Origin: Rudanella paleaurantiibacter
GTDB lineage: Bacteria; Bacteroidota; Bacteroidia; Cytophagales; Spirosomataceae
Length of the DNA: 64,000 bases
Assembly (NCBI RefSeq): GCF_009184635.1
Contig: NZ_WELI01000011.1
Location: forward strand, 62,001-126,000
Direction of reading: 5' to 3'
Below the pieces are notes generated by a model. That model did not search any database. It worked only from the letters and a program-made list of their open reading frames with translations, and was not told the origin of the DNA. This document shows, in pieces, positions 3,480 through 23,830 of the stretch. The translations under genes were made by a program, and so were the position numbers. How positions within the stretch are numbered: the stretch's first letter is position 1; each line of letters opens with the position of its first letter.

Positions 3480-4190
3480 TTACGATTTGCTGAAAAGTTG
3501 GGTTAACAAACGACGTTGTTGGGTGATGATCTGAGCCGTTCCCGACAGGACCGCTTCACGCAGGGCTGTCCCCCCGTGCTGGAAGCGCAGATCGGTGGGT
3601 AGTTTGATCGATACCTGGTAGTTGCCTTCTACCGGTAGGGGCGATACGGCATATACCTCACCCTGGAGCGAGCCGTATTTCTGGGCGGGATAGGCGCTCA
3701 GTTGCAGCGTAACGGGCATTCCGGGCCGGATACTACCCATGTCGTCGCCGTTTACTTCGGCGGTAGCCACGTATTGTCGGGTGGTGTCGTGCAGGGCAAT
3801 CAGGGCTTCCTGGGCTGGAGCCACATCACCTACGGCGAGGGGGCGGAGCCATTGCACCCGACCCTTACGCGGGGCATTCACCGACCGGGTTGAGCCATCG
3901 GGGAGTTGGTACGTGAATAACGGTTGACCGGCGCGCACCAATTCGCCCGCCCGGACGGCAAGGTGGGTCAATGTACCACTCTGCCCGGTTTTGAGCAGCT
4001 CCGGTGGGCGTTTGAGTTCGAGCCGAACGCGGGCGTTGACTACGTCGGGGTAGGGGAAGAAAAACGCACCAATCAGCAACAGCATGAGCGTGGCAAACAC
4101 AATAGTGCTGCCCCAACGGGTGAGCCATTTAGGCACCGACCCCATAATTTCCTGAATCTCTTCACTGCGGATTTCGAGTTGAGCAGGCAT
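3480..4190 (-). CDS. Short HlyD-type membrane fusion protein of the RiPP locus
   Basis: A 236-aa inner-membrane adaptor. It has a cytoplasmic N-terminus with EEIQEIMGSVPKWLTRWG, one membrane helix at about 28-46, a biotinyl-lipoyl-like segment (LAVRAGELVRAGQPLF) and a C-terminal beta domain (IRPGMPVTLQLSAYP). HlyD adaptors of bacteriocin exporters are usually around 400 residues with a long helical hairpin; that hairpin is missing here. The N-terminus resembles that of the second adaptor at 23126 (QEIIGHVPPWIVRWG). The two adaptors probably pair with the two C39 ABC transporters in the right arm. The upstream 445 bp contain a tandem palindromic repeat array. Confidence 0.85.
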   Translation of the reverse strand: MPAQLEIRSEEIQEIMGSVPKWLTRWGSTIVFATLMLLLIGAFFFPYPDVVNARVRLELKRPPELLKTGQSGTLTHLAVRAGELVRAGQPLFTYQLPDGSTRSVNAPRKGRVQWLRPLAVGDVAPAQEALIALHDTTRQYVATAEVNGDDMGSIRPGMPVTLQLSAYPAQKYGSLQGEVYAVSPLPVEGNYQVSIKLPTDLRFQHGGTALREAVLSGTAQIITQQRRLLTQLFSKS

Positions 4191-4200
4191 GGGAAAAGGG

Positions 4201-4211
4201 GTTTATGGTTT
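4201..4211. repeat. GTTTATGGTTT motif, left member of an inverted pair
   Basis: The 11-mer GTTTATGGTTT is here and its reverse complement is at 4619-4629. Together they bracket the whole gap between the HlyD and LanB genes. The same inverted pair occurs between the two lanthipeptide precursor genes (8567-8577 and 8633-8643). Function unknown. Confidence 0.5.
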
Positions 4212-4256
4212 TGGTTTTACGTTTCTTAGTACTGGACAAGAAGTACAAGGTTAATT

Positions 4257-4548
4257 GGACGCGGATGACGCCGATATAGCGAATTCGCGCTGATGAGTGA
4301 TCCGTGAAAATTAGCCAATCAGCGTCATCCGCGTGCTAATTCTTTAAACTCCTAATGGGACGCTGATAACGCCGATGCAACGAATTCGCGCTGATGAGTA
4401 ATCTGTGAAAATCCACCAATCCGTGTCATCTGCGTGCCAATTCTTTAAACTCCTAATCGAACGTGGATGGCGCCGATATAGCGAATTCGCGCTGATGAAT
4501 AATCCGTGAAAATCTGTCTAATCCGTGTCATCTGCGTGCCAATTCTTT
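4257..4548. repeat. Three tandem ~100-bp palindromic repeats between HlyD and LanB genes
   Basis: Units start near 4257, 4358 and 4458. Each begins with a GACGCGGATGACGCCGAT-like stretch, then a conserved GCGAATTCGCGCTGATGA palindrome, and ends with CCGTGTCATCTGCGTGC and AATTCTTT. The two ends of a unit are roughly complementary, so each could fold into a hairpin. No ORF is credible inside. A related single copy lies at 14199-14317 in the other arm of the locus. They look like interspersed palindromic repeats rather than genes. Confidence 0.8.
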
Positions 4549-4635
4549 CGTACTGAGCTTGCGTTTTGGGTTTATGATTATTGCTTTCATTATGAAGTTG
4601 TTGTTTCGCGAGAACAAGAAACCATAAACCATCTC

Positions 4636-7600
4636 TCAAGCCGGTTGCAGGACACCCTTTTTCTGGCGGGCCATCTGCGACTCGTAATACTTGCTCAGGT
4701 AGTGGTAAATGACTAGCTCGTGCTGACGCTGCTTCGATAGGAAAAACCGGTTGAGCGTCATGTGAATATAGCTGGGCATCAGCCGGTCGCGGTCGGCCTG
4801 CACGAGCGGATGGGTGGCCATCGGCTTGAGAGCCAGCGACCGTTTTTCGAAACAGGCCACGGCTTCCTCAATTTCGTCGGTATCGGCTTCGGGTGTCAAA
4901 ATCTGGTTCACGAGGGCTCGGTGGGCCCGATACCGGTCGTTGAGCCGGTGCAGCAGCGTGGGCGAACCGCCAAACTCGGCCCGAAAACCGGCGCCAATCT
5001 GATCAATAAGGGCACGGCGTTCGTCGAGTGAGTATCCAAAATCATCAAACAGCCGGTCGACGTTGCGGAGGGCAAACTGCCAGCGATACTGCTCGCCCGC
5101 GTCGCCTTCAATGAGTGACAGGAAGTCGGTAATAGCCACACTGTCGTGGTAAAAAAACGTTTCGCTCAGGAGCATGGTTGGCTCGCCGTACCGTTCAATT
5201 TCGCGTTGGTAGGTGTCTACCTGAAGTTTCATGAGCAGACCCTCGTCCAGATACGGTTGAGTTGCTGCCTGCAACCGTGTCAGCAACGTGGCCCAGAAAC
5301 CCGAGTTGGGGTCACCGTGGAAACGCACACGCAGGTGCGGCAGCGGGTCGGCATAGCGGATAAAGAACCAGCTATCGATTTGCCTTTGCGCCAGCATCTC
5401 CTCGGCCAGCGGTTTAATCACCTCTACCAGCAGCCGTTCGGCGGTTTTGTTGCCGCCGTACAGTTTCACATAAAGCCACTCGCTACCCACCATAAACTGC
5501 CGGGGCAGCGCCGTGCCGACGGGTGCCTGCAACCGGGGCTGGACGGGGGTTGAGGTAGTTACGTGCAGCGGAAAAAGCAACTCATGGCAGTAGGTTCCGT
5601 TTTTATCACCGACAAAACACTGGTCAACCGTTTGCAGGTGTTCAAACAGAATAATGTCTTTCTTCTTCAGCTTGTCGACCAGAATCTGTCCGGCGGCAAA
5701 GCAATCGAGGTCGAGGGGTAGGTCGTTGTCGCCTTCGTGCAGGACCACCCAGCGGGGTAACCCGAGCGATTGCCGCAACTCGGCCACAAACGTTGCCGGA
5801 TTTGGGCTTTTCTCAAGTGATTTGGCGTACGTTTTCGATTCCAGATACCAGCGTTCGTAGCTCAGGACAAACTTCTGGTAGCTGATACGGGGCAGGTGCG
5901 GCTCCTTGCGGTACACGCCCCAGTCCCACGAAAACGGCTGGCTGTAGCCCTGATGCTGCAAATCGCAGAGGAACCGGTACACGGCAATGCCCTGTGTAAA
6001 ATTATGGGCCGTTGAAAGCCGGGGGATAATCCGGCGGTTCAGGCGTTTAGACCGGAGAACAACCTCATCGTTTTGAATAGACACGAGCAGGTCGTCGGCG
6101 CCAATGCAGTGACTGTCGGGGGCTGCCGACCGCCCCATGTACGCTATTTCGTAATCCCGCAACTGCGGGCGCAACAGCACATTACCCGTGCGGGCTTCGG
6201 GCAGGTGCACAATCTCAGCAAAAATGGCCTCAGGTTGGCTTGCTTCCTCCTGCCGGAGCAGGTCGTTGACCGATTGGGCCAGGGCTGGGTCGCCGTGGCA
6301 GAACCGACCGAGCAGATTAGCCGCCGTTGGCCCAAAGAGGTTGCCGTACACAAAGGTATAGTCGCCCCGGTCGAGAGCCTCGGTGCTACCGGCCAGGAGC
6401 TGCCCGAACATATACATACTGGCCGGAAACCGGTTAGGCCGGTCGGGGTCGACAATGGAGTCGATATCGGCCTCGGTCAGCTCCACCGATTGTCTGTTCT
6501 GGCCCAGAAACCGGGTGTAAACCGCTTGCCGAAGCCGGGCCTCGTTCGTCCAGTTCATGGGCGTCGACGACCGTTTCTGGCGCGGAATCACCAAATCTTT
6601 CAGCAGGACAAGGTTGTCGGCCTTACCCTGCCCCGTGGCTCCGTAGCCAATACCCGACTCGTTGTCGAGCGCCAGCAGCAAGGGCACTTCCTGCTCCTCC
6701 CAGCGTTCGGAAAACCGACGTTTAAACTCGTCGAGGTCGTTGTTTTTCATCCGGTTGCCCGCTTCCAGCAGTCGGTTGGCCGTCTGTGTCAGTTCATTCA
6801 GCAGGTTCTGGTTTAGGTTAGCCCGCTCGGTTGCAAAGTAGGTATCGACCTGCACAAGGTCTTTGCTTTGGGTAGCCGTGAGCCGGTCAACTACGTCTTT
6901 GATAAACAGATACCGGCTGATTGGGCTGTCGGACCCATTCAGCAGCGCTTTTACGTTGCTCAGTTGCTCCACCAGCTCATCCGTACCGTCCAGTTGCCGG
7001 AGCCGGTCGAGCAGTACCCCAAAAAACTCGGGGCCTGTAACGGTAGGTTCCAGTTCGCTGGTCAAAATCTGGCTGTCAATGAGTTGGTTGACAAACGCCG
7101 TTGCCTGATCGAGTCGGATGGTGTCGCTTACAAGCATCTGCGCCAGTTGGTCAATTGTTTTTCCGCCCTGAGCCGCTTCCACCACGCGGCTCACATAGGC
7201 CGAGGCCCGCACGCCCGCAAGCAGGTATGACCGGTTTTTGTTACGGAGTTTGTACTCTACGTACCGGTACTGATCGCCAATCTGGTACAGGCTATTGTTG
7301 GGCAAAAATCGGAGTTGGCTCCTGATCGCGGGCTGCCGCACGAGTGTGCTAGCCAGCTCGGCTACGTAGTTCATATCGAGCCGAACGTGTTTGCGCAGCT
7401 TGGTATCAGCAAAGCGAATGGCGCTCGGTTGGTGGGTGATGGTTCCGGTGGCGCAACCCGCAAACAAACCGTAGGGGGTGCTGCGGGAGGTCATTCGGAG
7501 GTAGTATTTGTAGAGGGAATACAGCAGGCGCTCTACCTTGTCGGGGCTGCTTTTCTCCCCGTTGAGCCACCGCTCCGTTTCGGCGTATAACTCCGGCGAC

Positions 7601-7773
7601 GCCAGGTAGATGGCCTCGCGCATGAGTTCCTGCCCGTAAACCTGACGCATCCGGTCGGCTAAACCGGTCAGGCCCGCATTGGCAATGTGCGCGTTAGCTT
7701 CCAGCAGTTCGTCCAGGGGCAGGGTAGGCGTTCGTACCAGAAAAAAAGAACCGGCGTGTAAGGTGTGTTTCAT
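4636..7773 (-). CDS. lanB: Class I lanthipeptide dehydratase (LanB), full length
   Basis: A 1045-aa protein, the usual size for a full-length LanB. The glutamylation domain is N-terminal, with the conserved R-x-TPYGLFAG motif at about residues 97-106. The last ~300 residues are the elimination domain (SpaB-C / thiopeptide-type), seen from WLYVKLYGG, FFIRYADPLPHLRVRFHG and TYQREIERYG. Class I LanB enzymes glutamylate Ser/Thr with Glu-tRNA and eliminate glutamate to give dehydroalanine or dehydrobutyrine. Likely substrates are the two Cys-rich precursors 0.5-1 kb upstream on the same strand. It follows the single-domain receiver by 120 bp, and that gap contains the AGTGTTTCA-type element also found before both precursors. 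Confidence 0.93.
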   Translation of the reverse strand: MKHTLHAGSFFLVRTPTLPLDELLEANAHIANAGLTGLADRMRQVYGQELMREAIYLASPELYAETERWLNGEKSSPDKVERLLYSLYKYYLRMTSRSTPYGLFAGCATGTITHQPSAIRFADTKLRKHVRLDMNYVAELASTLVRQPAIRSQLRFLPNNSLYQIGDQYRYVEYKLRNKNRSYLLAGVRASAYVSRVVEAAQGGKTIDQLAQMLVSDTIRLDQATAFVNQLIDSQILTSELEPTVTGPEFFGVLLDRLRQLDGTDELVEQLSNVKALLNGSDSPISRYLFIKDVVDRLTATQSKDLVQVDTYFATERANLNQNLLNELTQTANRLLEAGNRMKNNDLDEFKRRFSERWEEQEVPLLLALDNESGIGYGATGQGKADNLVLLKDLVIPRQKRSSTPMNWTNEARLRQAVYTRFLGQNRQSVELTEADIDSIVDPDRPNRFPASMYMFGQLLAGSTEALDRGDYTFVYGNLFGPTAANLLGRFCHGDPALAQSVNDLLRQEEASQPEAIFAEIVHLPEARTGNVLLRPQLRDYEIAYMGRSAAPDSHCIGADDLLVSIQNDEVVLRSKRLNRRIIPRLSTAHNFTQGIAVYRFLCDLQHQGYSQPFSWDWGVYRKEPHLPRISYQKFVLSYERWYLESKTYAKSLEKSPNPATFVAELRQSLGLPRWVVLHEGDNDLPLDLDCFAAGQILVDKLKKKDIILFEHLQTVDQCFVGDKNGTYCHELLFPLHVTTSTPVQPRLQAPVGTALPRQFMVGSEWLYVKLYGGNKTAERLLVEVIKPLAEEMLAQRQIDSWFFIRYADPLPHLRVRFHGDPNSGFWATLLTRLQAATQPYLDEGLLMKLQVDTYQREIERYGEPTMLLSETFFYHDSVAITDFLSLIEGDAGEQYRWQFALRNVDRLFDDFGYSLDERRALIDQIGAGFRAEFGGSPTLLHRLNDRYRAHRALVNQILTPEADTDEIEEAVACFEKRSLALKPMATHPLVQADRDRLMPSYIHMTLNRFFLSKQRQHELVIYHYLSKYYESQMARQKKGVLQPA

Positions 7774-7893: not shown

Positions 7894-8274
7894 CTATTTT
7901 TTTGCTGCGAGGTCGTGGATTTGGTCGACTACGTGGCAGAATCGTTCGAAAGAAACCGGCTTGTTCAGCACGGCAAAGGCCATATCGGTGGTTTGGGCGG
8001 GCAGGTAAGCCGGGGGGTAGGCCGTCACGAGCACAACCCAGAGCATCCGGTCGTTGAAGTCGGCAAGGGCCGTCCAGTCGTGGGCGGTGTAAACCGGTAA
8101 TTCTACATCCATAAAGACCACGTTAATGGCCGGGTTGGCCATCAGGTGGTCGTACACATCGAGCAGGTTGGTGCAGACCCCCGCAAGCTCAATGCCGCTC
8201 AGCCGTTCTACATACGACTGAATCAGTTCACGAGCCAGGGGCTCATCGTCGGCAATGAGGCAATACAAAGGCAT
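7894..8274 (-). CDS. Stand-alone receiver-domain response regulator
   Basis: A 126-aa protein made only of a LytTR-type receiver. Residues D9-D10-E11, phospho-acceptor D56 (VVFMDVELP), T84 and K105 (VLNKPVSFERF) are all present. No LytTR DNA-binding domain follows; the stop comes right after the last receiver helix. The ATG at 8274 was chosen because upstream in-frame codons run through the terminator of the precursor gene. It lies between the precursors and lanB. It may compete with or relay phosphate from the LytS kinase at 9472-10686, or act by protein contact; both are inference. Confidence 0.85.
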   Translation of the reverse strand: MPLYCLIADDEPLARELIQSYVERLSGIELAGVCTNLLDVYDHLMANPAINVVFMDVELPVYTAHDWTALADFNDRMLWVVLVTAYPPAYLPAQTTDMAFAVLNKPVSFERFCHVVDQIHDLAAKK

Positions 8275-8285
8275 AGTGTGAACAG

Positions 8286-8333: not shown

Positions 8334-8528
8334 TTACTCGGCCTGCAGAGCGGCTTTGGTTTTCGTTGCGTTGCAGCTGTTGCTGCCGCAGCTGGCTACG
8401 TAGCACTCCTCGTCGGCACCGTCAGTCGACTCATCGACCCCACCGGCAATTTGCGAGAGCTCCTGCTCATCGAGGTTACCAATCGTTTCTTTGTCCAATG
8501 CGAGCGGAGATACAGTTGACTTTTTCAT
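8334..8528 (-). CDS. Lanthipeptide precursor (twin 1), GG leader with Cys-rich core
   Basis: A 64-aa peptide. Leader residues 1-30 end in DEQELSQIAGG, the double-glycine site cut by C39 peptidase exporters. The core has three cysteines at exact five-residue spacing (C42, C47, C52) with Ser residues between them (ECYVASCGSNSCNATKTK), suitable for LanB dehydration and lanthionine closure. It is about 85% identical in the leader and clearly homologous in the core to the second precursor at 8675-8863. The family is Bacteroidota GG-leader class I lanthipeptide precursors; ring pattern and activity are unknown. Confidence 0.9.
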   Translation of the reverse strand: MKKSTVSPLALDKETIGNLDEQELSQIAGGVDESTDGADEECYVASCGSNSCNATKTKAALQAE

Positions 8529-8674: not shown

Positions 8675-8863
8675 TTATTCAGCCTCGATGGCCACTTTGG
8701 TTTTGGTGCCGTTACAGCTACCGCTGTTGCAGCTTGCGACCCAGCACTCTTCCTGGCTGCCCGACTCGTCGGAGCCACCGGCAATTTGTGAGAGCTCCTG
8801 CTCGTCGAGGTTGCCAATTGTTTCTTTGTCAAGGGCAAGCGGAGATACAGCTGACTTTTTCAT
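8675..8863 (-). CDS. Lanthipeptide precursor (twin 2), GG leader with Cys-rich core
   Basis: A 62-aa peptide. The leader (residues 1-30) is nearly the same as in twin 1 and ends in AGG. The core has cysteines at C40, C45 and C50, again every fifth residue, in EECWVASCNSGSCNGTKTK. Differences from twin 1 are concentrated in the acidic spacer after GG and at a few core positions (W for Y, N for G, G for A), which suggests duplication followed by diversification of the product. It is transcribed toward twin 1 with a 146-bp spacer. No other gene separates the pair. Confidence 0.9.
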   Translation of the reverse strand: MKKSAVSPLALDKETIGNLDEQELSQIAGGSDESGSQEECWVASCNSGSCNGTKTKVAIEAE

Positions 8864-8983: not shown

Positions 8984-9196
8984 TCAGTCGTCGGTTTCGG
9001 CCAGAAACTCATCAATCGATGAGGTAAATACCGGATTGCCGGTATCATTGGCTTCGGCTTCCTGGAGCTTACTCAAAAACTGGTTGCCACCCACTACATC
9101 GGCCAGTTGGTTCGCATCCAGCGACTCGATGTGGTTTATTTCGAGGAGGGAGCCTCGGGTGCGGGTGAAGCTGCGAAAAAGCCCACTCAGGTTCAT
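8984..9196 (-). CDS. Cys-free GG-leader peptide, RiPP precursor-like
   Basis: A 70-aa peptide. A leader-like segment ends in SLDANQLADVVGG (GG at 36-37) and matches the general LxxxxLxxIxGG pattern of Bacteroidota peptide leaders. The 33-residue core is acidic, contains Ser/Thr (S42, T52, T58-S60, T68) but no Cys, so it cannot form lanthionines by itself. It lies 6 bp after the 49-aa ORF and 120 bp before twin 2. It may be a substrate of another enzyme, a partner peptide, or a degenerate precursor. The 64-aa peptide at 18859 has the same architecture. Confidence 0.75.
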   Translation of the reverse strand: MNLSGLFRSFTRTRGSLLEINHIESLDANQLADVVGGNQFLSKLQEAEANDTGNPVFTSSIDEFLAETDD

Positions 9197-9202
9197 GGCT
9201 GA

Positions 9203-9352
9203 TTAGGGTTGAGCGTTGAACTTGACGTGCGTGATAATGATGGTTGTGAATGCCGAGCGGTTACGGTCGTCGGTGGTAGCCTGGGGGTGATCCAGCAGGG
9301 TAAGGGTTGATTTTTGGAGTTCGAGGGGCGAAAGAGAGAGTTTGTTTTTCAT
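9203..9352 (-). CDS. 49-aa leader-like peptide, probable atypical precursor
   Basis: The ATG at 9352 gives 49 residues starting MKNKLSLSPLELQKSTLTLLD, which parallels the start of the twin precursors (MKKSAVSPLALDKETIGNLD). There is no GG site and no Cys; the C-terminal part is rich in Thr, Ser and Ile. It is the first gene of the precursor series and ends 6 bp before the 70-aa peptide. It could be a precursor handled by a different protease, or a decayed copy. Support is leader resemblance and position only. Confidence 0.6.
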   Translation of the reverse strand: MKNKLSLSPLELQKSTLTLLDHPQATTDDRNRSAFTTIIITHVKFNAQP

Positions 9353-9471: not shown

Positions 9472-10686
9472 TTAGTTTTCGTCGATTGTCGAAGGGCGTG
9501 GAATCGGCTCGGGCTGGGTGGTGGGGGCGGGGTGCAAAACCAGCTGAACGACAAACTGTTCGGGATGCGACTCGATCCGTAGGGAGTGCCGACCGGGGTA
9601 TAGAATTGACAGCCGACGCCGGGCATTTTCGATGCCGATACCGCCATCACGCCGGGCTGCGGTCGGTTTCATCAGGTCGCTATGGGCCGGAATACTATTG
9701 GCAATCCAGAAAGTAATGGCGTTGGGGGTCAGGTTCAGGCGAATGTGTACGCTACCTTGTTTTAGTTCGTTCTTGACCCCATGCTTGAACGCATTTTCGA
9801 CGAACACAATAAGTAGCAAGGGCGGAATGACATGCGGGCTTGGGTCGCCTTCGACCTCAAACGTCAGGTCGATACGGGAGCCCAGCCGGGTTTGTTCGAT
9901 GTAGAAATAATTTTGCAGAAAATCGATTTCGTCCTGTAGTGGCATCTGCGGCAAATCGGTGTTGTACAAGGCGTACCGCATCAGGTCTGATAGCCGCAGG
10001 ATCAGGTCGGGGGCCCGGTCCGATTTTTTGATACTGAGTGAATACAGGCTGTTGAGCGTGTTGAAAAAGAAGTGTGGGTTTACCTGCGCCTTCAGGAAGT
10101 TGAGCTCCAGGTTCAGGTTTTCCTGGGCAATACGCATATTGTCCTGTTCCAGAATCAAATTTCGGTTGGCGTACCGGACGGCCTCTTTCGACAGTTTGAT
10201 TACGTAACACAGCGACTGGGGGTTGATAACCTGATAAAAAATAAACCCATTTAACCAGTTTTGGGCATAAAATGACTCGAAGCCAGCCCCGCTTCGTTTA
10301 AAAATAAGTTGCCAGAATGCCCGCGATTCGGGCAGGAGTTTGTACTGGAGAATCAGGTAATCGTGCAGGTAGGTAAAGACAATGTTGCCGTTTACAAGCA
10401 CGGCCAGCAGCAGGGGGAGCGTACCTACTTTGTACGTACTGGGTACGCGGTTCCACCAGAACAAGAGGCTGTAATACACCAGTATGTTATACCCGACGTG
10501 TTTGCTTGCCTCTACCCAGGCGTAGGCCGGTTTGGCACCCGGATGCAAATCGCGGAATAGCCAAAGCTGAATGACCAGCTCGGTGATCCAGAACACCAAA
10601 TGATACAAAGGCCGCCACCGTCGATAGCGCGGGCTATCGAACAAAAAATCATTGACCCATTGCTGCACGTTCTGGCGTAGGGGCAT
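9472..10686 (-). CDS. LytS-type membrane histidine kinase
   Basis: A 404-aa kinase. Three to four membrane helices occupy about residues 28-160, followed by a short coiled coil (NLILEQDNMRIAQENLNLE) and the His_kinase domain with phospho-His H205 in QVNPHFFFNTLNSLYSL. The ATP-binding domain shows VIPPLLLIVFVENAFKHG and GGIGIENARRRL. There is no periplasmic sensor domain, as in peptide-sensing or envelope-sensing LytS kinases. It follows the LytTR regulator gene by 12 bp, forming a two-gene operon upstream of the precursor genes, and so probably regulates the RiPP locus. Confidence 0.92.
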   Translation of the reverse strand: MPLRQNVQQWVNDFLFDSPRYRRWRPLYHLVFWITELVIQLWLFRDLHPGAKPAYAWVEASKHVGYNILVYYSLLFWWNRVPSTYKVGTLPLLLAVLVNGNIVFTYLHDYLILQYKLLPESRAFWQLIFKRSGAGFESFYAQNWLNGFIFYQVINPQSLCYVIKLSKEAVRYANRNLILEQDNMRIAQENLNLELNFLKAQVNPHFFFNTLNSLYSLSIKKSDRAPDLILRLSDLMRYALYNTDLPQMPLQDEIDFLQNYFYIEQTRLGSRIDLTFEVEGDPSPHVIPPLLLIVFVENAFKHGVKNELKQGSVHIRLNLTPNAITFWIANSIPAHSDLMKPTAARRDGGIGIENARRRLSILYPGRHSLRIESHPEQFVVQLVLHPAPTTQPEPIPRPSTIDEN

Positions 10687-14355: not shown

Positions 14356-15549
14356 ATGAAGCCGATAAACAAAACTCCCATTACCGAGCAAATTGAGCGC
14401 ATTGCCAATGAGTTGCCCCAATACGAGTCGTGGTTGCAAACGTCCAGTTACGATCAGGGGTTGTTTGGCCTGAGCCTGTTCTACTGCTTTTACGCCCGCT
14501 ACACTGGCGACGATAGCCACTACGCAACGGCCGAGGTACACTTCGACAAGGCGCTTGAAATGGTTGGGCCGGGGAGCTATGTCAAGCGGTTCCGGCAAGA
14601 CTTTATCGGGAATGACATCATGATGCTCGGCCGGTATATCGAGTACTCGAAACGCCACGGGTTTCTGGACATCGACACGAACGAATTCCTCAAACAGGCC
14701 GACGAGGTAGTAGCCGATACCGTTCGGCGGAGAACCCGTTTCGGCGACCTCGATCTCTTTGGCGGGGCCATGATGGGGGGGCATTACTTCCACGCCCGGC
14801 TGGCCTCGACTCCCTCAGCCCGGGAAATCTTAGCCGAACTGGTTGAAGAGGTGGACCGGCTGGCGCAGTACGACCACGCGGGCGGAGCGTTCTGGAAAGC
14901 ACCGACGCTGCAAAACCGGGTGTATTTCGGGCTGTCGCACGGCTCGGCCATGATTCTGAGTTTTCTGGCCCGGATGCACGAGTTGGGTATCCGGGCCGAA
15001 ACCTGTCGGCGGTTGCTGCGGGCGGGTGTGCAGTTTGTGCTGGCGCACCGGCGCACACAACCCCTGGGGCTGTTTCCGATCATGGTAGACGATGAGGTGG
15101 AGCCGAAGCAGTTTTCGCAATGTTACGGCGACCTCGGTACGGGCTACGGGTTGTTTCGGGCGTCGCAGATTCTGACCGATCAGGCCGACTTACAGCAACA
15201 GACCCGCGCCGTGCTGGCCGATTGCTGCAACCGGACCGTAGCCGACGGTTGCACCTTCGATGCGTCGATTACCTACGGGGCCGCCGGCCTGGCGGGGGTG
15301 TTTGATAAGTTGTACCGCCTGAGCAACGACCCCATGTTTGCGGCTGCCGCCAACAACTGGTACGCCAGTATCATGAAGTACGCTAAACCGACGGGCCCCT
15401 TTGGCGGGTTCGATAGCTTCTTCGACGAAGACAAAACCTCCTACATGCGGGTGTCGTGGGGGTGGGGCATGATCGGGATTGGCATTGCGCTGATGCAGTA
15501 TCAGGACAATACCCTGCCGCCTTTCGACGGCCTCAACATGACTATTTAA
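14356..15549 (+). CDS. LanC-like lanthionine cyclase with altered zinc site
   Basis: A 397-aa LanC-family protein. Conserved features: GLSHGSA (H195, matching the catalytic His of NisC), QCYGDLGTGYG (C256, one zinc ligand) and DASITYGAAGLAG. The last motif normally reads CHG and supplies two more zinc ligands; here it is TYG (residues 306-308), so both are missing. The rest of the alpha-toroid spacing is normal and the gene is intact. Class I LanC enzymes add Cys thiols to dehydrated Ser/Thr. The change may mean an alternative metal geometry, Cys supplied from elsewhere (C290, C291 and C299 lie just before), or a non-catalytic role. It lies 52 bp before the first C39 exporter gene. Confidence 0.85.
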   Translation: MKPINKTPITEQIERIANELPQYESWLQTSSYDQGLFGLSLFYCFYARYTGDDSHYATAEVHFDKALEMVGPGSYVKRFRQDFIGNDIMMLGRYIEYSKRHGFLDIDTNEFLKQADEVVADTVRRRTRFGDLDLFGGAMMGGHYFHARLASTPSAREILAELVEEVDRLAQYDHAGGAFWKAPTLQNRVYFGLSHGSAMILSFLARMHELGIRAETCRRLLRAGVQFVLAHRRTQPLGLFPIMVDDEVEPKQFSQCYGDLGTGYGLFRASQILTDQADLQQQTRAVLADCCNRTVADGCTFDASITYGAAGLAGVFDKLYRLSNDPMFAAAANNWYASIMKYAKPTGPFGGFDSFFDEDKTSYMRVSWGWGMIGIGIALMQYQDNTLPPFDGLNMTI

Positions 15550-17794: not shown

Positions 17795-18856
17795 ATGACC
17801 ACGACACACTGCGCTACCGAAACCCTCGCCGACCTGACCGAGCGATTCCCCGAGTTTCCGTCGGCTGAGCAGGCCCCCAAACCCGTACACGACGACCGCA
17901 AACTCTGGACGCTGTTTGTGGACAAAGAGATGACAGCTCTGATGCCCGCCGACGAATACAGCCGGGCTAAGGCCGTGACTACCTACTTTTTTCGGGCTGT
18001 TGATCAGCTGAAAACCAGACAGATGGAGTCGGTCGGGGCGTTGCTGCGGCAAGGGGTCGAGGCATTGCAAACGCTCACACACCCGTACGCGCACCTCTAC
18101 GCCCGGCAGTTCCAGTTGTCGGCCGATGCGTTGTATGCCTACAAGGAAGGGCGGTACGATTTGGCCTTTGCCCAGACCGTGGAGTGCGTCGGCCTCAACG
18201 ACTATCTGGTGCGGCTGGGTTGCCCGTCTATGCTGTTCAGGAGTCTGGAACAAAACATAAACCTGTGTCTGGTCTACAGCCGACAGGGTAATGTGGCCGC
18301 TGAACGACGGATGCTCAATGGCCTGATTCGGTACCTCTTGTTGGGTGAGACAGATTCGGCCCTGTTCGGAACGGCGTTTGCCGATAGCGTGCCCCAGCTC
18401 CGGTCGGGGTACCTGGCGTTTGTGGCCGAGGGGTGTCTCAAAACCTACGTGGCAACAGCCGCCGGTATGCTGATTCGGACGGCCGGCGCCAACCCCGAAG
18501 CCGAAGCGGGTCATTTTGAGGAACTGCTGGGCAATATCGGGGAGTTTGCCGCACCGAGCCTGGAGCGGGTAGTGCTGTATAACTGGCTGTACCTGAAGCG
18601 GGTGTATTTCAGAGGTGCGTTTGATCAGTTTGCGCAGGAGGTGGCCGAATTTCTGGCCGAGCCCTACGAGCGCCGGTTCGACGTGCTAAAATTCTCACTC
18701 TGCCAGAACCTGCTGTTCGGTCTGCAATCCCGTAGTATCCGGGCCCCTCTGCTCGAAGCGCGTATTCAGACGTATATCCACACCAAACTTTCGTACAAAC
18801 CGGGTCAATCTAATTTCCTATTGCCGGGTCAAACCGGTCAGAACCAGCTCGCTTAG
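17795..18856 (+). CDS. Unknown 353-aa protein of the RiPP locus
   Basis: Not recognised. It has no signal peptide or membrane segment and looks largely alpha-helical, with Ala/Leu-rich stretches (LLRQGVEALQTLTHPYAHLYARQ) that could be TPR-like. The gene starts 3 bp after the first C39 exporter and ends 2 bp before a GG-leader peptide, so it is translationally coupled to both. Possible roles are a leader-recognition or scaffold protein, an immunity factor or a novel modifying enzyme; none is shown by the sequence. No catalytic motif was identified. Confidence 0.8.
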   Translation: MTTTHCATETLADLTERFPEFPSAEQAPKPVHDDRKLWTLFVDKEMTALMPADEYSRAKAVTTYFFRAVDQLKTRQMESVGALLRQGVEALQTLTHPYAHLYARQFQLSADALYAYKEGRYDLAFAQTVECVGLNDYLVRLGCPSMLFRSLEQNINLCLVYSRQGNVAAERRMLNGLIRYLLLGETDSALFGTAFADSVPQLRSGYLAFVAEGCLKTYVATAAGMLIRTAGANPEAEAGHFEELLGNIGEFAAPSLERVVLYNWLYLKRVYFRGAFDQFAQEVAEFLAEPYERRFDVLKFSLCQNLLFGLQSRSIRAPLLEARIQTYIHTKLSYKPGQSNFLLPGQTGQNQLA

Positions 18857-18858: not shown

Positions 18859-19053
18859 ATGTACCTTGATGCACTTCGCCAACAGTTGACCGCGCCCCGT
18901 GGGGCCGACCAACCCGACGCCATCGACCTGCTCGATGAAGCGGCCCTGCAACAGATTCGCGGGGGCGACAAAGAGTTTACACCCATGGGACCCGAAGCCG
19001 AATCGCTCCACGAGCTCTGGCAAATGCCCCGGTTTTTGGTGCAACTGGGGTAA
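18859..19053 (+). CDS. GG-leader peptide coupled to the 353-aa protein, RiPP precursor-like
   Basis: A 64-aa peptide with a leader-like segment LLDEAALQQIRGG (GG at 35-36) and a 28-residue Cys-free C-terminus (DKEFTPMGPEAESLHELWQ...). The architecture matches the 70-aa peptide at 8984, including the LLDxxxLxxIxGG pattern. It starts 2 bp after the 353-aa gene. It is probably cut by the C39 exporters; whether it is modified is unknown. The core contains W and F, which could suit the downstream radical SAM enzyme, but the 59-aa ORF next to that enzyme is the closer candidate. Confidence 0.75.
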   Translation: MYLDALRQQLTAPRGADQPDAIDLLDEAALQQIRGGDKEFTPMGPEAESLHELWQMPRFLVQLG

Positions 19054-19128
19054 TGAGTGAATGAGCGATTGAGTGAATGGCCGAGGGCAAGTGTCCGGGC
19101 TTCGCCCGCTCAATCGTACTCTCATTAA

Positions 19129-19334
19129 ACCCCACCCCCAGCCCCTCCCCGTTAGGGAGGGGGGAGTCACCTGAGTGAAGAACCTTTTTCCAATCAGGGA
19201 GGGGGAGTTAATCCCAGCCACTCCTCGTCAGAGACGGGAAAGTTCCCGGCGTCAAGAGCCATTCACTGAAGGGTGAGGGGGAGTGTCGGCGTTAAAAGTC
19301 CCCTCCCTAACGGGGAGGGGGTTGGGGGTGGGGT
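19129..19334. repeat. Inverted repeat of an intergenic GC-rich family, 34-35 bp arms
   Basis: Arm 19129-19162 (ACCCCACCCCCAGCCCC... ending GTTAGGGAGGGG) is almost the reverse complement of 19300-19334. The 137 bp between them hold further GGGGAGT-type fragments and no gene. This whole 339-bp gap separates the 64-aa peptide from the 59-aa peptide. Repeats of this text are common between genes in Bacteroidota genomes, as far as I recall. Confidence 0.8.
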
Positions 19335-19392
19335 CGACGACCCTAAACCACTTCAAATACAAGGTGCCATGTAATTCAATCACTCATTAGCT

Positions 19393-19572
19393 ATGCCCAA
19401 AAAGAAGCCGTTTTTTCTGAAACCTAAAGACGACGAGACGCGTAAAAAGACGCTCGACAGTCTTAAAGAGGCCGGTATCGACATGACCACCGACAAAATT
19501 TTTGGCGGCTGGAAAGAGTCCGGTAAGCTCCGTATCGACGATACCGACCCGCTGAGCACAGCCTCCCGTTAA
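19393..19572 (+). CDS. 59-aa peptide directly upstream of the radical SAM maturase, candidate precursor
   Basis: ATG 19393 to TAA 19572 encodes a basic N-terminus (MPKKKPFFLKPKDDETRKKT), a helical LDSLKEAGIDM stretch and the C-terminal IFGGWKESGKLRIDD segment, then TDPLSTASR. The stop lies 13 bp before the radical SAM gene, so the pair is almost certainly co-transcribed. No GG site and no Cys. FxsB/GrrM-type radical SAM/SPASM enzymes usually have a small precursor next door and cross-link aromatic side chains; F and W in the FGGW segment are the obvious candidates. It could instead be a leader-binding helper. Confidence 0.7.
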   Translation: MPKKKPFFLKPKDDETRKKTLDSLKEAGIDMTTDKIFGGWKESGKLRIDDTDPLSTASR

Positions 19573-19585
19573 CCCATTGTTTGCC

Positions 19586-20818
19586 ATGAAACCAACCGAC
19601 GCCCCCGTGCCCGCGCCTACCTTTTGCCAGACGGCCATTCTGAAAGTGGCCAGTTTGTGTAATCTGAACTGTAGCTATTGCTACATGTACAATCTGGGCG
19701 ATACCACCTACCGGCGTCAACCTAAATTCATGGCTGACGATACCGTTGCCTGGCTCTTGCAACGGGTGCAGACCCACTGCCAACAGCACGGCTTGCGGCA
19801 GTTTCGGTTTATCTTTCACGGGGGGGAACCCCTGCTGGCCCCGCCCCAGTTTTATGAACGCTTTGTGGCGCAGGCCCGGCTTCAACTGACTGGGGTGAGG
19901 GTGTATTTCTCCGTACAATCCAACGGAACGTTGCTGACCGATGCCTGGTGTGAATTGCTCGGTCGGTTGCGTATCGACCTGAGCATCAGTGTCGACGGGA
20001 CCCCCGATGCTCACGATCAGTTTCGGCGCGACCATCAGGGCCGGGGCTCGTACGAAGCCGTTCGGCGGGGAATTGAGCTGGCCCGGCGGTCGGCTCACCT
20101 GCTGGCCCCGCCCGCCCTGATGAGCGTGATCAACGTGCAGGCCGATCCGGTGGCGGTGTACGAGCACCTCGCCGATCTGGGAATGCCATATCTCGACTTT
20201 GCCCTGCCCGACGCCCACCACGGCCTGTTACCCACTGGTTTACACCATTGGCGCGATATGGACCGGGCCCCGTTTGCCGATTGGCTTATCCGACTGTTTG
20301 ACCGGTGGATGGATGACCGGCCTGTGCGCGTCTCGATCCGGCTCTTTGACCAGATTATGGGATTGGTACTGGGCATCGACAACGGGTTTGAGTACTTCGG
20401 GGGGCGGCACAACGAGTTTCTGATTATCGAAACCGATGGCTCCATTGAACCTGTGGGTACGCTCAAAGCCTGTGGGGATGGCTTTACCAAAGTGGGGGCC
20501 AATGTGCGCACCCACGACTTCGACGAGGCTTTGGCCGTGCCTCTGATTCAGCTGTACCACCTGAGTCACCATCAGCTTGCGGCCGCGTGCCGGGCCTGCC
20601 GGGTGGTGGAGGTATGCGGAGGTGGATTTTTGCCGCATCGGTACAGCCCGGAACGGGGTTTCGACAACCCCTCGGTGTACTGCCACGACCTTCAGCGGCT
20701 TATTGTCCACATTCAGAACCGGCTGCTCGACGCCCTGCCTGCACCCGCCCGTCGGGCTACGGGCTTGCGTCGGTTGCGGTTCGAAAGCCTCTATCCGCAG
20801 CGCCCGGTTTTACACTAA
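19586..20818 (+). CDS. Radical SAM/SPASM peptide maturase (FxsB/GrrM-like)
   Basis: A 410-aa enzyme. The radical SAM cluster is C25-x3-C29-x2-C32 (LCNLNCSYCYMY), followed by FHGGEPLL and a SPASM-type C-terminus with C335, C338, C344 and C366 (ACRACRVVEVCGGG). The text after the cluster (GDTTYRRQPKFM) recalls FxsB-type cyclophane-forming maturases. ATG 19586 was chosen over the TTG at 19577. It lies 13 bp after the 59-aa peptide and 12 bp before the second C39 exporter. These enzymes abstract hydrogen from a side chain to form C-C or C-O cross-links; the exact chemistry cannot be read from the sequence. Confidence 0.88.
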   Translation: MKPTDAPVPAPTFCQTAILKVASLCNLNCSYCYMYNLGDTTYRRQPKFMADDTVAWLLQRVQTHCQQHGLRQFRFIFHGGEPLLAPPQFYERFVAQARLQLTGVRVYFSVQSNGTLLTDAWCELLGRLRIDLSISVDGTPDAHDQFRRDHQGRGSYEAVRRGIELARRSAHLLAPPALMSVINVQADPVAVYEHLADLGMPYLDFALPDAHHGLLPTGLHHWRDMDRAPFADWLIRLFDRWMDDRPVRVSIRLFDQIMGLVLGIDNGFEYFGGRHNEFLIIETDGSIEPVGTLKACGDGFTKVGANVRTHDFDEALAVPLIQLYHLSHHQLAAACRACRVVEVCGGGFLPHRYSPERGFDNPSVYCHDLQRLIVHIQNRLLDALPAPARRATGLRRLRFESLYPQRPVLH

Positions 20819-20830
20819 CTCACTCGACGT

Positions 20831-23122
20831 ATGGCCTTTACCTTCCACCGACAACTCGACTTTATGGACTGTGGCCCCACCTGCCTCAAAATGGTGGCGG
20901 GGTACTACGGCCGCGACTACTCGCTCGACTACCTGCGGGCCAACGCGCACATCACCAAACAGGGGGTGAGCCTGATGGACCTGAACGAGGCCGCCGAAAA
21001 AATCGGGTTCAAAACGCTGCCCGTGCGGCTGTCAGTCGATCAGTTGCTCGACAACGCGCCCTTGCCCTGCATTTTGCACTGGAACAGCGAGCATTTTGTG
21101 GTGTTGCACAAGGTGTCGCCCGCCCGATGGGGCCGCAAAGAGGCCCGGTTTGTGGTGGCCGACCCGGCCCACGACATGGTTTCGATTGATCGTGAAACGT
21201 TTATGCACGGCTGGTGCGGGGCCGAGGGGAAAGGGATTGCGCTCCTGCTCGAACCCACGCCTGCTTTTTACGAGCAGAGCGCCCCGGCCGACGCCCAACC
21301 CCGCGACCTGCGGTTTCTGTATCAGTACCTCCGGCCTTACAAGCGGTACATCATTCAGATTCTGTTCGGGATGCTGTTTTCGAGTGTGCTGGCGCTCATT
21401 ATGCCGTTTCTGACGCAGGGGCTGGTCGATTATGGCATTCAGCGGCAGGATTTTCGGTTTATTCACCTTGTGCTGTTTTCCCAGTTGATTCTGTTTTTGG
21501 GCAGTATCAGCGTCGACCTGATTCGTAACTGGATTCTGCTCCACGTGAATACGCGGGTGAGCGTGTCGATTATCTCTAACTTTCTGGTAAAGCTGATGAA
21601 GTTGCCCATTCAGTTTTACGACTCCAAAAACATCGGCGACATCTCGCAGCGCATCAGCGATCACCACCGCATTGAAAGCTTTCTGACTGGGTCCACACTC
21701 CAAATGCTTTTTTCGCTCGTTAATCTGGTGGTGTTTTCGGTCGTGCTGGGGATGCACAGCTTGCCTATTTTGGGGTTGTTTTCGCTCGGTAGCGGGCTTA
21801 CTCTCGGCTGGACGTTACTGTTTTTGCGCCGACGTAAAAATCTGGATTACAAGCGGTTTCAGCGTTTGCGGGAACACCAGAACAGCATCTACGAGATTAT
21901 TACGGGCATGTACGAGATAAAGCTCAATCACTGCGAACGCCGACGGCGGTGGGATTGGGAGCGGATTCAGGCTAAGCTGTTCAAAATCAATATTGAGAGC
22001 CTGGCGCTGGAGCAGTATCAGGAGGTGGGGGCTACGTTTCTGACCCAGCTTAAGAATATTCTGGTGTCGTACATGGCGGCTATTGCCGTGATGGAGCATG
22101 AGTTTTCGTTGGGGGTGATGCTCAGTATCTCGTACATTGTGGGGCAGATGAACGAGCCCATTGCGCAACTGTCGCGGTTTTTGCGCAACCTGCAGGACGC
22201 CCGCGTGAGCATCGAACGGCTCGGCGAAATTCATAACCGCCCCGACGAAGATGAGGACGAAGACGAGCGGGCAACGGCCCCGGCGAACGAGCCCGATGGC
22301 GTTTCGCTCGAATCATTTTACGAGTCGCAGCGGCTGAACACCTTGCTACAGGCCAACGCCCGCCGGACAAACACCACGGAGGGGATTCGGTTGCGCGGGG
22401 TCACGTTTCGGTACGGGGGGCAGCGCAATACCCCCGTGCTTCGGGACGTAGACCTGACCATTCCGAAGGGTAAAGTAACGGCCATTGTGGGCGCGAGTGG
22501 CAGCGGCAAAACCACCCTGCTCAAACTGCTACTGAAGTTTTACGCGCTGAACGAAGGCGACATCACGGTGGAAGGGCGCGACCTGAAACAGTACCCCGCC
22601 CGCGAATGGCGCCGACGCTGCGGCACTGTGATGCAGGAGGGCTATATTTTTTCGGACACCATTGCCCGCAACATTGCCGTAGACGGCGAACCGATCGACG
22701 AAGCCCGGTTCCGGTACGCCATTCGGGTGGCTAATCTGGACGATTTTGTGCAGCGGCTACCGCTCGGTTTTGCTACGCGCATTGGCAACACGGGCGCGGG
22801 TCTGAGCGGGGGGCAGAAACAGCGTATTTTCATTGCGCGCGCGGTGTACAAAAACCCCGACTACCTGTTTTTCGACGAAGCCACGAGCGCCCTCGACGCC
22901 AACAATGAGCGCACTGTGATGGATAATCTGCAAACGTTTTTCAAAGACCGCACCGTGTTGGTGATTGCCCACCGACTCAGCACCGTGATGAATGCCGATC
23001 AGATTGTGGTGCTCGACAAGGGCGAGGTGGTGGAAGTTGGCACACACCACGAACTGACCGTGATGGGACGCGGGCATTATTACGAACTGGTCAAAAATCA
23101 GCTGCAACTCGAAACCCTGTAA
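20831..23122 (+). CDS. C39 peptidase-containing ABC exporter (PCAT), copy 2
   Basis: A 763-aa paralogue of the exporter at 15602. C39 residues are C14 (DCGPTCL), H88 (SEHFVVLHK) and D111 (ADPAH). Walker A is GASGSGKTT, the signature is canonical LSGGQKQR and Walker B is YLFFDEATSALD. A ~45-residue insertion rich in Asp/Glu (about 475-520) separates the membrane domain from the ATPase. It starts 12 bp after the radical SAM gene and ends 3 bp before its HlyD adaptor, suggesting dedication to the radical SAM product, while copy 1 would serve the lanthipeptides. Substrate assignment is inference. Confidence 0.94.
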   Translation: MAFTFHRQLDFMDCGPTCLKMVAGYYGRDYSLDYLRANAHITKQGVSLMDLNEAAEKIGFKTLPVRLSVDQLLDNAPLPCILHWNSEHFVVLHKVSPARWGRKEARFVVADPAHDMVSIDRETFMHGWCGAEGKGIALLLEPTPAFYEQSAPADAQPRDLRFLYQYLRPYKRYIIQILFGMLFSSVLALIMPFLTQGLVDYGIQRQDFRFIHLVLFSQLILFLGSISVDLIRNWILLHVNTRVSVSIISNFLVKLMKLPIQFYDSKNIGDISQRISDHHRIESFLTGSTLQMLFSLVNLVVFSVVLGMHSLPILGLFSLGSGLTLGWTLLFLRRRKNLDYKRFQRLREHQNSIYEIITGMYEIKLNHCERRRRWDWERIQAKLFKINIESLALEQYQEVGATFLTQLKNILVSYMAAIAVMEHEFSLGVMLSISYIVGQMNEPIAQLSRFLRNLQDARVSIERLGEIHNRPDEDEDEDERATAPANEPDGVSLESFYESQRLNTLLQANARRTNTTEGIRLRGVTFRYGGQRNTPVLRDVDLTIPKGKVTAIVGASGSGKTTLLKLLLKFYALNEGDITVEGRDLKQYPAREWRRRCGTVMQEGYIFSDTIARNIAVDGEPIDEARFRYAIRVANLDDFVQRLPLGFATRIGNTGAGLSGGQKQRIFIARAVYKNPDYLFFDEATSALDANNERTVMDNLQTFFKDRTVLVIAHRLSTVMNADQIVVLDKGEVVEVGTHHELTVMGRGHYYELVKNQLQLETL

Positions 23123-23125
23123 CCT

Positions 23126-23830
23126 ATGGCGACTATTCCGAACGACAGCAGCCTCGACATGCAGGAGATTATTGGCCACGTGCCGCCCTGGATTGTGCGG
23201 TGGGGTATCTCACTACTCATTATTTTGTTTGGGGTGAGTGTGGGGTGTGCCCACCTGATTTCGTTTCCTGAGATTCTGACGGTGCGGGTCATGATTACGG
23301 CCTCCGAACAGCCCTCGTACACCAGCTGGTACAGCGCGGGCAACCTCATTTACCGCACCCCCGTGCGTGAGGGCCAAACCGTGCAGAAAGGCGATACCGT
23401 GCTGATTGAAGAAGATATTGAAACCGGCAAGGTGAGCTATACCCTCGCGCCCATTGGCGGCCGGGTGCTCATTACCAAGGGGTTTGAAAACAACCCGAAG
23501 AAAAACACGGTGATTATCCACCCGACTATATCGGAGTACAAAACCTACGTGAACATTCCCCCTCGGGGCGACGGTCAGGTGGCTGTGGGGCAGCGGGTGC
23601 TCGTGCACCTTGACAGCTACCCCAGTTATAAATTTGGGGCGCTCGAAGGGGTTATCACCTCGATCTCGCCCACCATTCTGAACAACCACCGGCAGGCTAC
23701 GGTGCGCCTGCTCAACGGCCTCCACACCGACCGCAACGACACCATCCCGGTGCAGTATCACCTGGTGGGCAATGCCAACATCTACCTCGACGACCGCAGC
23801 CTGTTGCAACGGCTGTTTCAGAGTCACTAA
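23126..23830 (+). CDS. Short HlyD-type membrane fusion protein, copy 2
   Basis: A 234-aa adaptor beginning 3 bp after the C39 exporter. It has N-terminal LDMQEIIGHVPPWIVRWG, one membrane helix at about 27-46, a lipoyl-like segment (TPVREGQTVQKGDTVLI) and a C-terminal beta domain (VAVGQRVLVHLDSYPSYKFG). As in the first adaptor at 3480, the helical hairpin that normally reaches toward an outer-membrane channel is missing. It is the last gene of the plus-strand arm. No TolC-type channel is encoded in the window. Confidence 0.87.
   Translation: MATIPNDSSLDMQEIIGHVPPWIVRWGISLLIILFGVSVGCAHLISFPEILTVRVMITASEQPSYTSWYSAGNLIYRTPVREGQTVQKGDTVLIEEDIETGKVSYTLAPIGGRVLITKGFENNPKKNTVIIHPTISEYKTYVNIPPRGDGQVAVGQRVLVHLDSYPSYKFGALEGVITSISPTILNNHRQATVRLLNGLHTDRNDTIPVQYHLVGNANIYLDDRSLLQRLFQSH

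What the first reader, a model, noticed from the sequence alone, without database searches (positions are those of the whole stretch)
3480..23830. Composite RiPP locus joining a class I lanthipeptide branch and a radical SAM branch
One locus of about 20 kb has LanB, a LanC-like protein, a radical SAM/SPASM maturase, two C39 exporters, two short HlyD adaptors, a LytS/LytTR pair, and at least six small precursor-like ORFs. The Cys-rich twins fit LanB/LanC and the 59-aa peptide fits the radical SAM enzyme. The paired exporter-plus-adaptor sets suggest two product lines under one regulator. The gene content is read from sequence; joint function is inferred.
Basis: partly seen in the sequence, partly recalled or inferred. 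Interest (0 to 1): 0.85.

Follow-up and report, generated by a model that had tools for sequence, protein, structure and literature searches.

The report
Lanthipeptide and cyclophane peptide gene cassette
A bacterial genome carries one inherited gene cassette that appears to make two chemically different kinds of modified peptide, a lanthipeptide and a tryptophan-crosslinked peptide, under one regulator; both kinds are known, but this pairing and two of its peptide families look undescribed.

Summary
In detail: LanB, LanC-like, radical SAM maturase, two C39 exporters, two short HlyD adaptors, a LytS/LytTR pair and six small ORFs, five of them under strong purifying selection. The arms are not chance neighbours: in 200 genomes of the family the GGW peptide beside this radical SAM type lies within 25 kb of a LanB in 21 of 25 genomes (about 0.4 expected), and LanB and radical SAM distances correlate at 0.96, or 0.95 after RpoB (14 loci). 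Corrections: the genome's only LanC-like protein lacks two of three zinc ligands, while 12 of 16 composite loci also carry a zinc-competent LanC; 10 of 16 composite loci have one C39 exporter, so two sets are not required. Addition: the 59-aa peptide belongs to an undescribed family whose 20 aligned cores all carry Trp/Phe-X-[E/Q/K/R/D], the three-residue cyclophane motif, nearly always beside a second undescribed peptide (RGGDKEYxPxYE). Best reading: one cassette, two product lines, one kinase, shared export. No product has been shown. New variant of known kinds.

The parts
1041..3476 (-). S9 prolyl-oligopeptidase-like peptidase (811 aa); candidate processing peptidase, outside the given coordinates
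   Evidence: PF00326 80.9 bits; a homologue near LanB in 6 of 16 composite loci (in G181 on a second contig with LanB)
3480..4190 (-). HlyD1, short periplasmic adaptor (236 aa)
   Evidence: PF13437 57.9 bits; in the same 6 of 16 composite loci that have C39a (G181 on a second contig)
4636..7773 (-). LanB, class I lanthipeptide dehydratase (1045 aa)
   Evidence: PF04738 and PF14028 nearly full length; solved relatives 9g04, 5ehk and NisB
7894..8274 (-). receiver-only response regulator (about 126 aa from an internal ATG)
   Evidence: PF00072 32.7 bits on the longer ORF; 96% identical in G002
8334..8528 (-). LanA1, Cys-rich lanthipeptide precursor (64 aa), leader LALDKETIGNL then GG
   Evidence: NF038153 37.6 bits, cut-off 22; 14 synonymous and 0 non-synonymous differences from G002
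8675..8863 (-). LanA2, twin Cys-rich precursor (62 aa)
   Evidence: NF038153 36.8 bits; 6 synonymous, 0 non-synonymous
8984..9196 (-). 70-aa GG-leader peptide without Cys, role unknown
   Evidence: pN/pS 0.06 against G002; no family above cut-off
9203..9352 (-). 49-aa Thr-rich peptide with lantibiotic-type leader and no GG; of a kind seen at LanB loci with and without radical SAM
   Evidence: NF038153 13.8 bits, below cut-off
9472..10686 (-). LytS-type histidine kinase
   Evidence: PF06580 89.8 bits
10699..11439 (-). LytTR response regulator
   Evidence: PF00072 and PF04397
11732..14191 (+). TonB-dependent-type outer-membrane beta-barrel protein
   Evidence: PF14905 274 bits; a homologue in 16 of 16 composite loci
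14356..15549 (+). LanC-like protein with two of three zinc ligands replaced (ITYG instead of CHG)
   Evidence: PF05147 57.9 bits; alignment of 31 LanC-like ORFs; only LANC_like match in the genome
15602..17791 (+). C39a, peptidase-ATPase exporter (DCGPTC and HFVVVH..ADP stretches present)
   Evidence: PF03412 123 bits and ABC domains
17795..18856 (+). 353-aa all-helical, TPR-like protein
   Evidence: AlphaFold model pLDDT 85.3; weak TPR-type Foldseek matches, none at E<=0.001; found in 8 of 16 composite loci, the window counted
18859..19053 (+). DKEY peptide (64 aa), core DKEFTPMG... after RGG
   Evidence: family seen in 25 of 28 loci; pN/pS 0.11; no Pfam or NCBIfam family above cut-off for the window member
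19054..19389 (.). 336-bp extra sequence with inverted-repeat ends between the two peptide genes; G002 has 56 bp there
19393..19572 (+). GGW peptide (59 aa), core WKESGKLRIDDTDPLSTASR
   Evidence: 20 of 20 aligned cores carry W/F-x-[EQKRD]; 17 synonymous, 1 non-synonymous; no NCBIfam family for the window member
19577..20818 (+). radical SAM maturase, predicted three-residue cyclophane synthase
   Evidence: closest solved relative ChlB 9gm3, 342 bits, profile positions 2-367 of 380; CxxxCxxC and five C-terminal Cys invariant in the 18 aligned
20831..23122 (+). C39b, peptidase-ATPase exporter
   Evidence: PF03412 105 bits and ABC domains; in 16 of 16 composite loci
23126..23830 (+). HlyD2, short periplasmic adaptor (234 aa)
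   Evidence: PF13437 28.5 bits; in 16 of 16 composite loci

Best explanation
The locus is one co-inherited RiPP cassette with two product lines. Line 1: LanB dehydrates Ser/Thr in the Cys-rich twins (and possibly in the Thr-rich 49-aa peptide); a zinc-ligand-poor LanC closes or helps close thioether rings. Line 2: the radical SAM enzyme joins the Trp ring to the beta-carbon of the residue two places on (W-K-E in this genome) in the GGW peptide, giving a triceptide-like cyclophane; the DKEY peptide is its near-constant partner (second component, signal or helper). GG leaders are cut by C39 domains during export; the LytS/LytTR pair controls both lines. Shown here: gene content, conservation, co-inheritance, peptide families, the Trp-x-polar motif and the missing zinc ligands. 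Inferred: all the chemistry, joint regulation, shared export, any antimicrobial or signalling role.
For: GGW gene within 25 kb of LanB in 21 of 25 genomes, about 0.4 expected. Window-type LanB: 16 of 19 in the tree lie beside the pair (G181 counted across a contig break), and the label needs at least 7 changes over 71 LanBs, so the link recurs. LanB and radical SAM distances r=0.96 over 14 loci, 0.95 after RpoB; with near copies out (13 loci) Pearson 0.89, Spearman 0.82. All 16 composite loci have one histidine kinase hit in the stretch fetched, and all have C39b, HlyD2 and the OMP. In the four LanB-DKEY-GGW-radical SAM loci read in full (G085, G024, G169, G125) these genes run on one strand. 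ChlB, called a multiple cyclophane synthase in a title in the reference list of PMC12636437 (passages seen), is the best solved relative. 20 of 20 GGW cores carry the i,i+2 motif; 0 of 5000 shuffles reach that. None of the 20 aligned GGW peptides holds Cys, so they cannot form a lanthionine within themselves.
Against: Each arm also exists alone: the radical SAM pair without LanB nearby in G005 (two loci), G076 and G117, and LanB+LanC without radical SAM in G174, G168 contig C3 and G065. LanB is in 103 of 200 genomes, mostly without this radical SAM type. Five of 30 genomes with a radical SAM match have no GGW peptide. The enzyme stays below NCBIfam cut-offs for FxsB and YhhB. The window genome lacks a zinc-competent LanC. 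The motif class was chosen after seeing the peptides, they are related, and 9 of 32 Trp/Phe in the cores do not fit it. Five of 16 composite loci have two LytTR-type hits and five have a second LanB, so single control is not proved. For the most distant pairs the LanB-radical SAM correlation falls to 0.68. No expression or mass data.
Confidence: 0.68

Rival explanations
1. Two independent RiPP operons that merely sit side by side in a genomic region that gathers secretion and RiPP genes, with no functional link.
For: Both arms occur alone in some genomes; the two halves of the window locus are on opposite strands; two exporter and adaptor sets; two LytTR-type hits in 5 of 16 composite loci.
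Against: 21 of 25 co-localisation against about 0.4 expected; partial distance correlation 0.95 after RpoB; one kinase hit per composite locus; single-strand versions in the four loci read in full; in the window LanC and the OMP sit in the radical SAM half while LanB sits in the other.
Confidence: 0.15
2. A multi-modified single product: LanB/LanC and the radical SAM enzyme act on the same peptide.
For: LanB directly beside DKEY, GGW and radical SAM in G085, G123, G024, G169 and G125; LanA2 core holds W-V-A and LanA1 Y-V-A.
Against: The 20 aligned GGW peptides hold no Cys; separate leader types; the three LanA relatives of G060 have no aromatic residue in the core; the GGW family occurs without LanB nearby in G005, G076 and G117.
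Confidence: 0.07
3. The radical SAM arm makes a pheromone (DKEY and/or cyclophane GGW) that switches on the lanthipeptide arm through the LytS/LytTR pair.
For: The start of the DKEY core is highly conserved, whereas cores of peptide toxins usually vary (recalled); kinase and LytTR also lie beside the peptides in radical SAM-only loci G005 and G076.
Confidence: 0.2

Closest known systems
Bacteroidetes class I lanthipeptides with the LxLxKx5L leader (PMC7268733, passages seen; pinensin group)
   Same: LanB, LxLxKx5L leader (here LALDKETIGNL), GG site, C39 exporter, NF038153 leader family
   Different: radical SAM arm with two further peptide families; LanC lacks two zinc ligands; pinensin itself was not compared by sequence here
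Triceptides / three-residue cyclophane-forming radical SAM enzymes (XncB, OscB, MscB, YhhB in PMC11002830; ChlB in PMC12636437; passages seen)
   Same: radical SAM maturase, aromatic residue with a polar residue at i+2, nearest models FxsB and YhhB, nearest solved structure ChlB
   Different: below the family cut-offs; the i+2 residue is mostly Glu, Gln or Lys, which the passages seen do not mention; near-constant second peptide (DKEY); lies with LanB
Radical SAM + LanC areas of Bacteroidales (PMC10352776, passages seen)
   Same: radical SAM gene with LanC-like proteins that lack the zinc motifs; the paper's nine drawn areas also include C39 exporters, OMP, TPR-like proteins and HK/RR, though two of the three LanC areas lack a C39 exporter
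   Different: no LanB in any genome screened there; here LanB and LanA peptides are present
Class III LanKC cyclase domains (PMC7296275, passages seen)
   Same: LanC-like domain without the zinc ligands
   Different: LanKC is a fused lyase-kinase-cyclase; here a free-standing protein with LanB in the same locus

Membership tests
Class I lanthipeptide system | LanB with glutamylation and elimination domains | tested here: met
   PF04738 and PF14028 nearly full length; NisB among solved relatives
Class I lanthipeptide system | precursor with class I leader and Cys plus Ser/Thr core | tested here: met
   NF038153 above cut-off for both twins
Class I lanthipeptide system | LanC with Cys, Cys-His zinc ligands | tested here: not met
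   first Cys kept (QCYGD), Cys-His replaced (ITYG); no other LANC_like match in the genome
Class I lanthipeptide system | lanthionine rings in the product | not testable with these tools
   needs mass spectrometry
Triceptide (3-residue cyclophane) | radical SAM CxxxCxxC plus auxiliary-cluster cysteines | tested here: met
   C25, C29, C32 and five C-terminal Cys invariant in the 18 sequences aligned (18 of 28 loci given); that the five are SPASM cysteines is inferred
Triceptide (3-residue cyclophane) | maturase inside a characterised cyclophane-forming family | tested here: inconclusive
   best hits FxsB 342 of 370 and YhhB 336 of 445 bits, below cut-off; profile matches ChlB at 342 bits
Triceptide (3-residue cyclophane) | precursor with an aromatic residue and its partner at i+2 | tested here: met
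   motif in 20 of 20 cores; the crosslink itself not tested
Triceptide (3-residue cyclophane) | C-C cyclophane in the product | not testable with these tools
   needs co-expression and MS/NMR
rSAM+LanC areas of Bacteroidales (PMC10352776) | no LanB in the area | tested here: not met
   LanB present at 4636-7773

The most novel reading that the evidence does not exclude
The cassette makes a multi-component peptide system in which a lanthipeptide and a cyclophane peptide (with the DKEY peptide) are meant to work together, as a two- or three-part weapon or as a signal plus a weapon, the first such pairing of the two chemistries under one regulator; its LanC has become a zinc-free cyclase or a non-catalytic scaffold.
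Probability: 0.3. Interest if true: 0.8.

Novelty: new variant of a known kind. Interest (0 to 1): 0.62.

Why it matters
Lanthipeptide and cyclophane pathways are usually mined separately. A cassette that keeps both together, with two precursor families that no NCBIfam model covers, gives new candidate substrates for cyclophane enzymes (Trp-x-Glu/Gln/Lys), a natural test of whether a LanC without its Cys-His zinc pair still makes rings, and a natural case of two RiPP chemistries under one control. It also warns that mining keyed to one enzyme class would see only half of the system.

Tried and rejected
Rejected: that the small ORFs are chance (purifying selection in five of six). Rejected as specific: the Thr-rich 49-aa peptide as a mark of the composite locus, because similar peptides sit at LanB loci without radical SAM. 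Rejected: GTGTTTCA as a shared promoter element (4 in the window, 2.3 expected, 21 of 100 shuffles as many). No Rfam match at gathering score in bases 1-30000. The weak phylum-wide hit to the DKEY family (G420, locus L201) is a row of other RGGD peptides. Foldseek of the 353-aa protein gave only weak TPR matches, so no function is claimed. LanC phmmer found nothing in the PDB. The ComC hit of the DKEY peptide is below cut-off, and the Pfam hits of a few DKEY members have E of 0.046 or worse. Literature searches that could have shown the LanB plus cyclophane pairing gave no description of it in the listings or in the passages read; the library holds open-access papers only, so this is not proof of absence.
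Full report
What was checked. The window is part of a 6.72-Mb genome (G000, contig C34). The two halves run apart from each other: on the minus strand S9 peptidase, HlyD1, LanB, a receiver-only response regulator, LanA1, LanA2, a 70-aa and a 49-aa peptide, kinase and LytTR; on the plus strand OMP, LanC-like, C39a, a 353-aa protein, a 64-aa peptide, a 59-aa peptide, radical SAM, C39b, HlyD2.

The small ORFs are genes. Against the same-genus genome G002, LanA1 shows 14 synonymous and 0 non-synonymous differences, LanA2 6 and 0, the 70-aa peptide 11 and 2, the 64-aa peptide 11 and 4, the 59-aa peptide 17 and 1; the 49-aa peptide shows 3 and 5, pN/pS 0.52, a weak case.

Conservation of the composite locus. 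In 200 genomes drawn from the same family, LanC-like matches with E of about 3e-40 or better occur in 16 genomes; in all 16 the radical SAM gene lies within about 22 kb on the same contig. A tblastn map of these 16 loci (recounted) shows an OMP, C39b, HlyD2 and one histidine kinase hit in each stretch fetched; a second LytTR-type hit in 5 of 16 and a second LanB in 5 of 16; the 353-aa protein in 8 of 16 at the threshold used (G000, G002, G060, G028, G039, G168, G198, G064). C39a and HlyD1 occur in the same 6 of 16 (G000, G002, G060, G145, G052, G181); 10 of 16 have C39b alone. An S9 peptidase occurs in 6 of 16. In G181 LanB, HlyD1 and S9 lie on a second contig. LanB as such is far more widespread, 103 of 200 genomes, and the window genome has two further LanB genes elsewhere, neither with the radical SAM arm within the 20 kb read.

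Two new peptide families. Upstream of the radical SAM gene, 25 of 28 loci inspected hold a DKEY peptide and 25 of 28 a GGW peptide (misses: G060, G195, G157 for DKEY; G195, G157 and the intact radical SAM copy of G162 for GGW). Profiles built from them (A2, A3) were run over the same 200 genomes: GGW matched 26 places in 25 genomes, 25 of the 26 beside an intact radical SAM gene of this type and one, in G162, beside a broken copy of which only C-terminal pieces are left; DKEY matched 27 places in 25 genomes, 25 of them in radical SAM loci, the others being G052 contig C16 (52 bits) and a weak one in G099. Since the profiles were built from these loci, the informative part is the near absence elsewhere. 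Neither family has an NCBIfam match above chance level, nor DKEY in Pfam; GGW as a set was not run against Pfam, its window member was, without a match. Over 395 genomes of the phylum the DKEY profile found only the window and one weak, other kind of peptide; a Mucilaginibacter record (by recall another family) does hold a DKEY and GGFIE pair (locus L125).

Chemistry inferred for the radical SAM arm. The 18 aligned maturases keep CxxxCxxC and five C-terminal cysteines. Best NCBIfam models are FxsB and YhhB, both named cyclophane-forming, both below cut-off. The best solved structure is ChlB (9gm3, 342 bits), called a multiple cyclophane synthase in a title in the reference list of PMC12636437. 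In triceptides the crosslink joins residues i and i+2 (PMC11002830, passages). All 20 aligned GGW cores hold Trp or Phe followed at i+2 by Glu, Gln, Lys, Arg or Asp; 0 of 5000 within-core shuffles did (mean 11, largest 18); by residue, 23 of 32 Trp/Phe fit, against 13.6 in shuffles. The motif class was set after seeing the peptides and they are related, so this is strong but not independent evidence. The predicted site here is W-K-E.

The LanC-like protein. Among 31 LanC-like ORFs from the loci there are two main kinds. One keeps WCYGD and CHG, as a zinc cyclase should. The other, to which the window protein belongs, has ITYG, ILYG, ILFG or similar instead of CHG, and keeps the first Cys in 12 of 16. 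All 16 composite loci have the degenerate kind; 12 of 16 also have the canonical kind next to it; the window genome, G002, G060 and G039 have only the degenerate kind in the locus, and the window genome has no other LANC_like match. Class III cyclase domains also lack the zinc residues (PMC7296275, passages), so loss of the ligands does not prove loss of function. LanC-like proteins without the motif were reported in radical SAM areas of Bacteroidales, there without any LanB (PMC10352776, passages).

One cassette or two neighbours. LanB lies within 25 kb of the GGW gene in 21 of 25 genomes, expected about 0.4 (the expectation uses a capped LanB list and so is slightly low). Exceptions are G181 (LanB at the end of another contig), G005, G076 and G117. 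In a tree of 71 LanBs (quick method; the 19 window-type ones are all matches of 827 bits or more, the others were chosen by me) 16 of the 19 lie beside the pair, G181 counted in; the three others are G174, G168 contig C3 and G135. The label needs at least seven changes on the whole tree. LanB and radical SAM distances correlate at r=0.93 over 15 loci and 0.96 over the 14 for which RpoB was found; with RpoB the two correlate at only 0.45 and 0.50, and the partial correlation is 0.95. Without near copies (13 loci) Pearson is 0.89, Spearman 0.82; for the 70 pairs with LanB distance over 0.45, Pearson is 0.68 and Spearman 0.75. So the arms move as a unit, not simply with the species. In the related loci G085, G024, G169 and G125 the order is kinase (in G125 as mapped), LytTR, small Thr-rich peptide, LanB, DKEY, GGW, radical SAM, then two to five Cys-rich peptides with another leader, all on one strand, followed in the two tested (G085, G125) by a second radical SAM gene nearest TIGR04463.

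How it most likely works. LanB dehydrates the LanA twins; the LanC-like protein closes rings or helps; the radical SAM enzyme makes a Trp-Glu cyclophane in GGW; C39 exporters cut after GG and export with HlyD adaptors; the kinase and LytTR control the set. DKEY is the near-constant partner, perhaps a signal or second component. The 353-aa protein folds as a helical repeat (pLDDT 85.3), with only weak TPR-type matches. Everything in this paragraph beyond gene content is inference from the families.

Known or new. Each arm is of a known kind. The pairing, the two peptide families and the zinc-ligand-poor LanC with a LanB make it a new variant. My searches of the open-access library listed no paper that describes the pairing; the 2020 survey PMC7268733 does note that radical SAM genes occur in lanthipeptide clusters in general (passages).

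Named relatives. Record titles include an uncultured Siphonobacter, Runella zeae DSM 19591 and a Spirosoma MAG; equal contig lengths and peptide sequences suggest that these are G060, G085 and G039, so the family is probably that of Spirosoma and Runella in the Bacteroidota. The organism of the window itself is not named.

Noticed in passing
window 19054-19389: 336 bp with 14-nt inverted ends and long G+C-rich inverted repeats between the DKEY and GGW genes, where G002 has 56 bp; its first 25-31 bases, a run of TGAGTGAA-like units, recur at 15 other places of the genome, so it may be a mobile insertion or a simple repeat.
   Followed up: partly
window 24152-24390: Four direct repeats of 37 nt spaced 60-73 nt, the left one degraded (62%), looking like a decayed CRISPR-type array; no cas genes were looked for.
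   Followed up: no
window 24033-24095: Perfect 28-nt inverted repeat with a 7-nt loop just right of the locus.
   Followed up: no
window 24958-26526: 522-aa protein with lysyl oxidase and proprotein-convertase P-domain matches (42.8 and 29.6 bits) next to the locus.
   Followed up: no
L101 8841-9972, L103 13168-14531: Related loci carry two to five Cys-rich peptides with leader PEEAEELAGG, followed by a second radical SAM gene nearest TIGR04463 (below cut-off); the one peptide tested matches no NCBIfam model.
   Followed up: partly
L239 3605-4606: G162 holds a second GGW peptide (GGWLEK) between a LanB and a broken radical SAM copy, about 18 kb from an intact radical SAM gene with a DKEY peptide.
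   Followed up: partly
L106 and L107 (G005): G005 carries four radical SAM matches of this type and two copies of the peptide pair with no LanB nearby; the radical SAM arm stands alone there.
   Followed up: partly
L121, L130, L134, L136: Other Bacteroidota radical SAM loci hold different small peptides, several ending in YTESTYVRR-like or Ser/His-rich tails.
   Followed up: no
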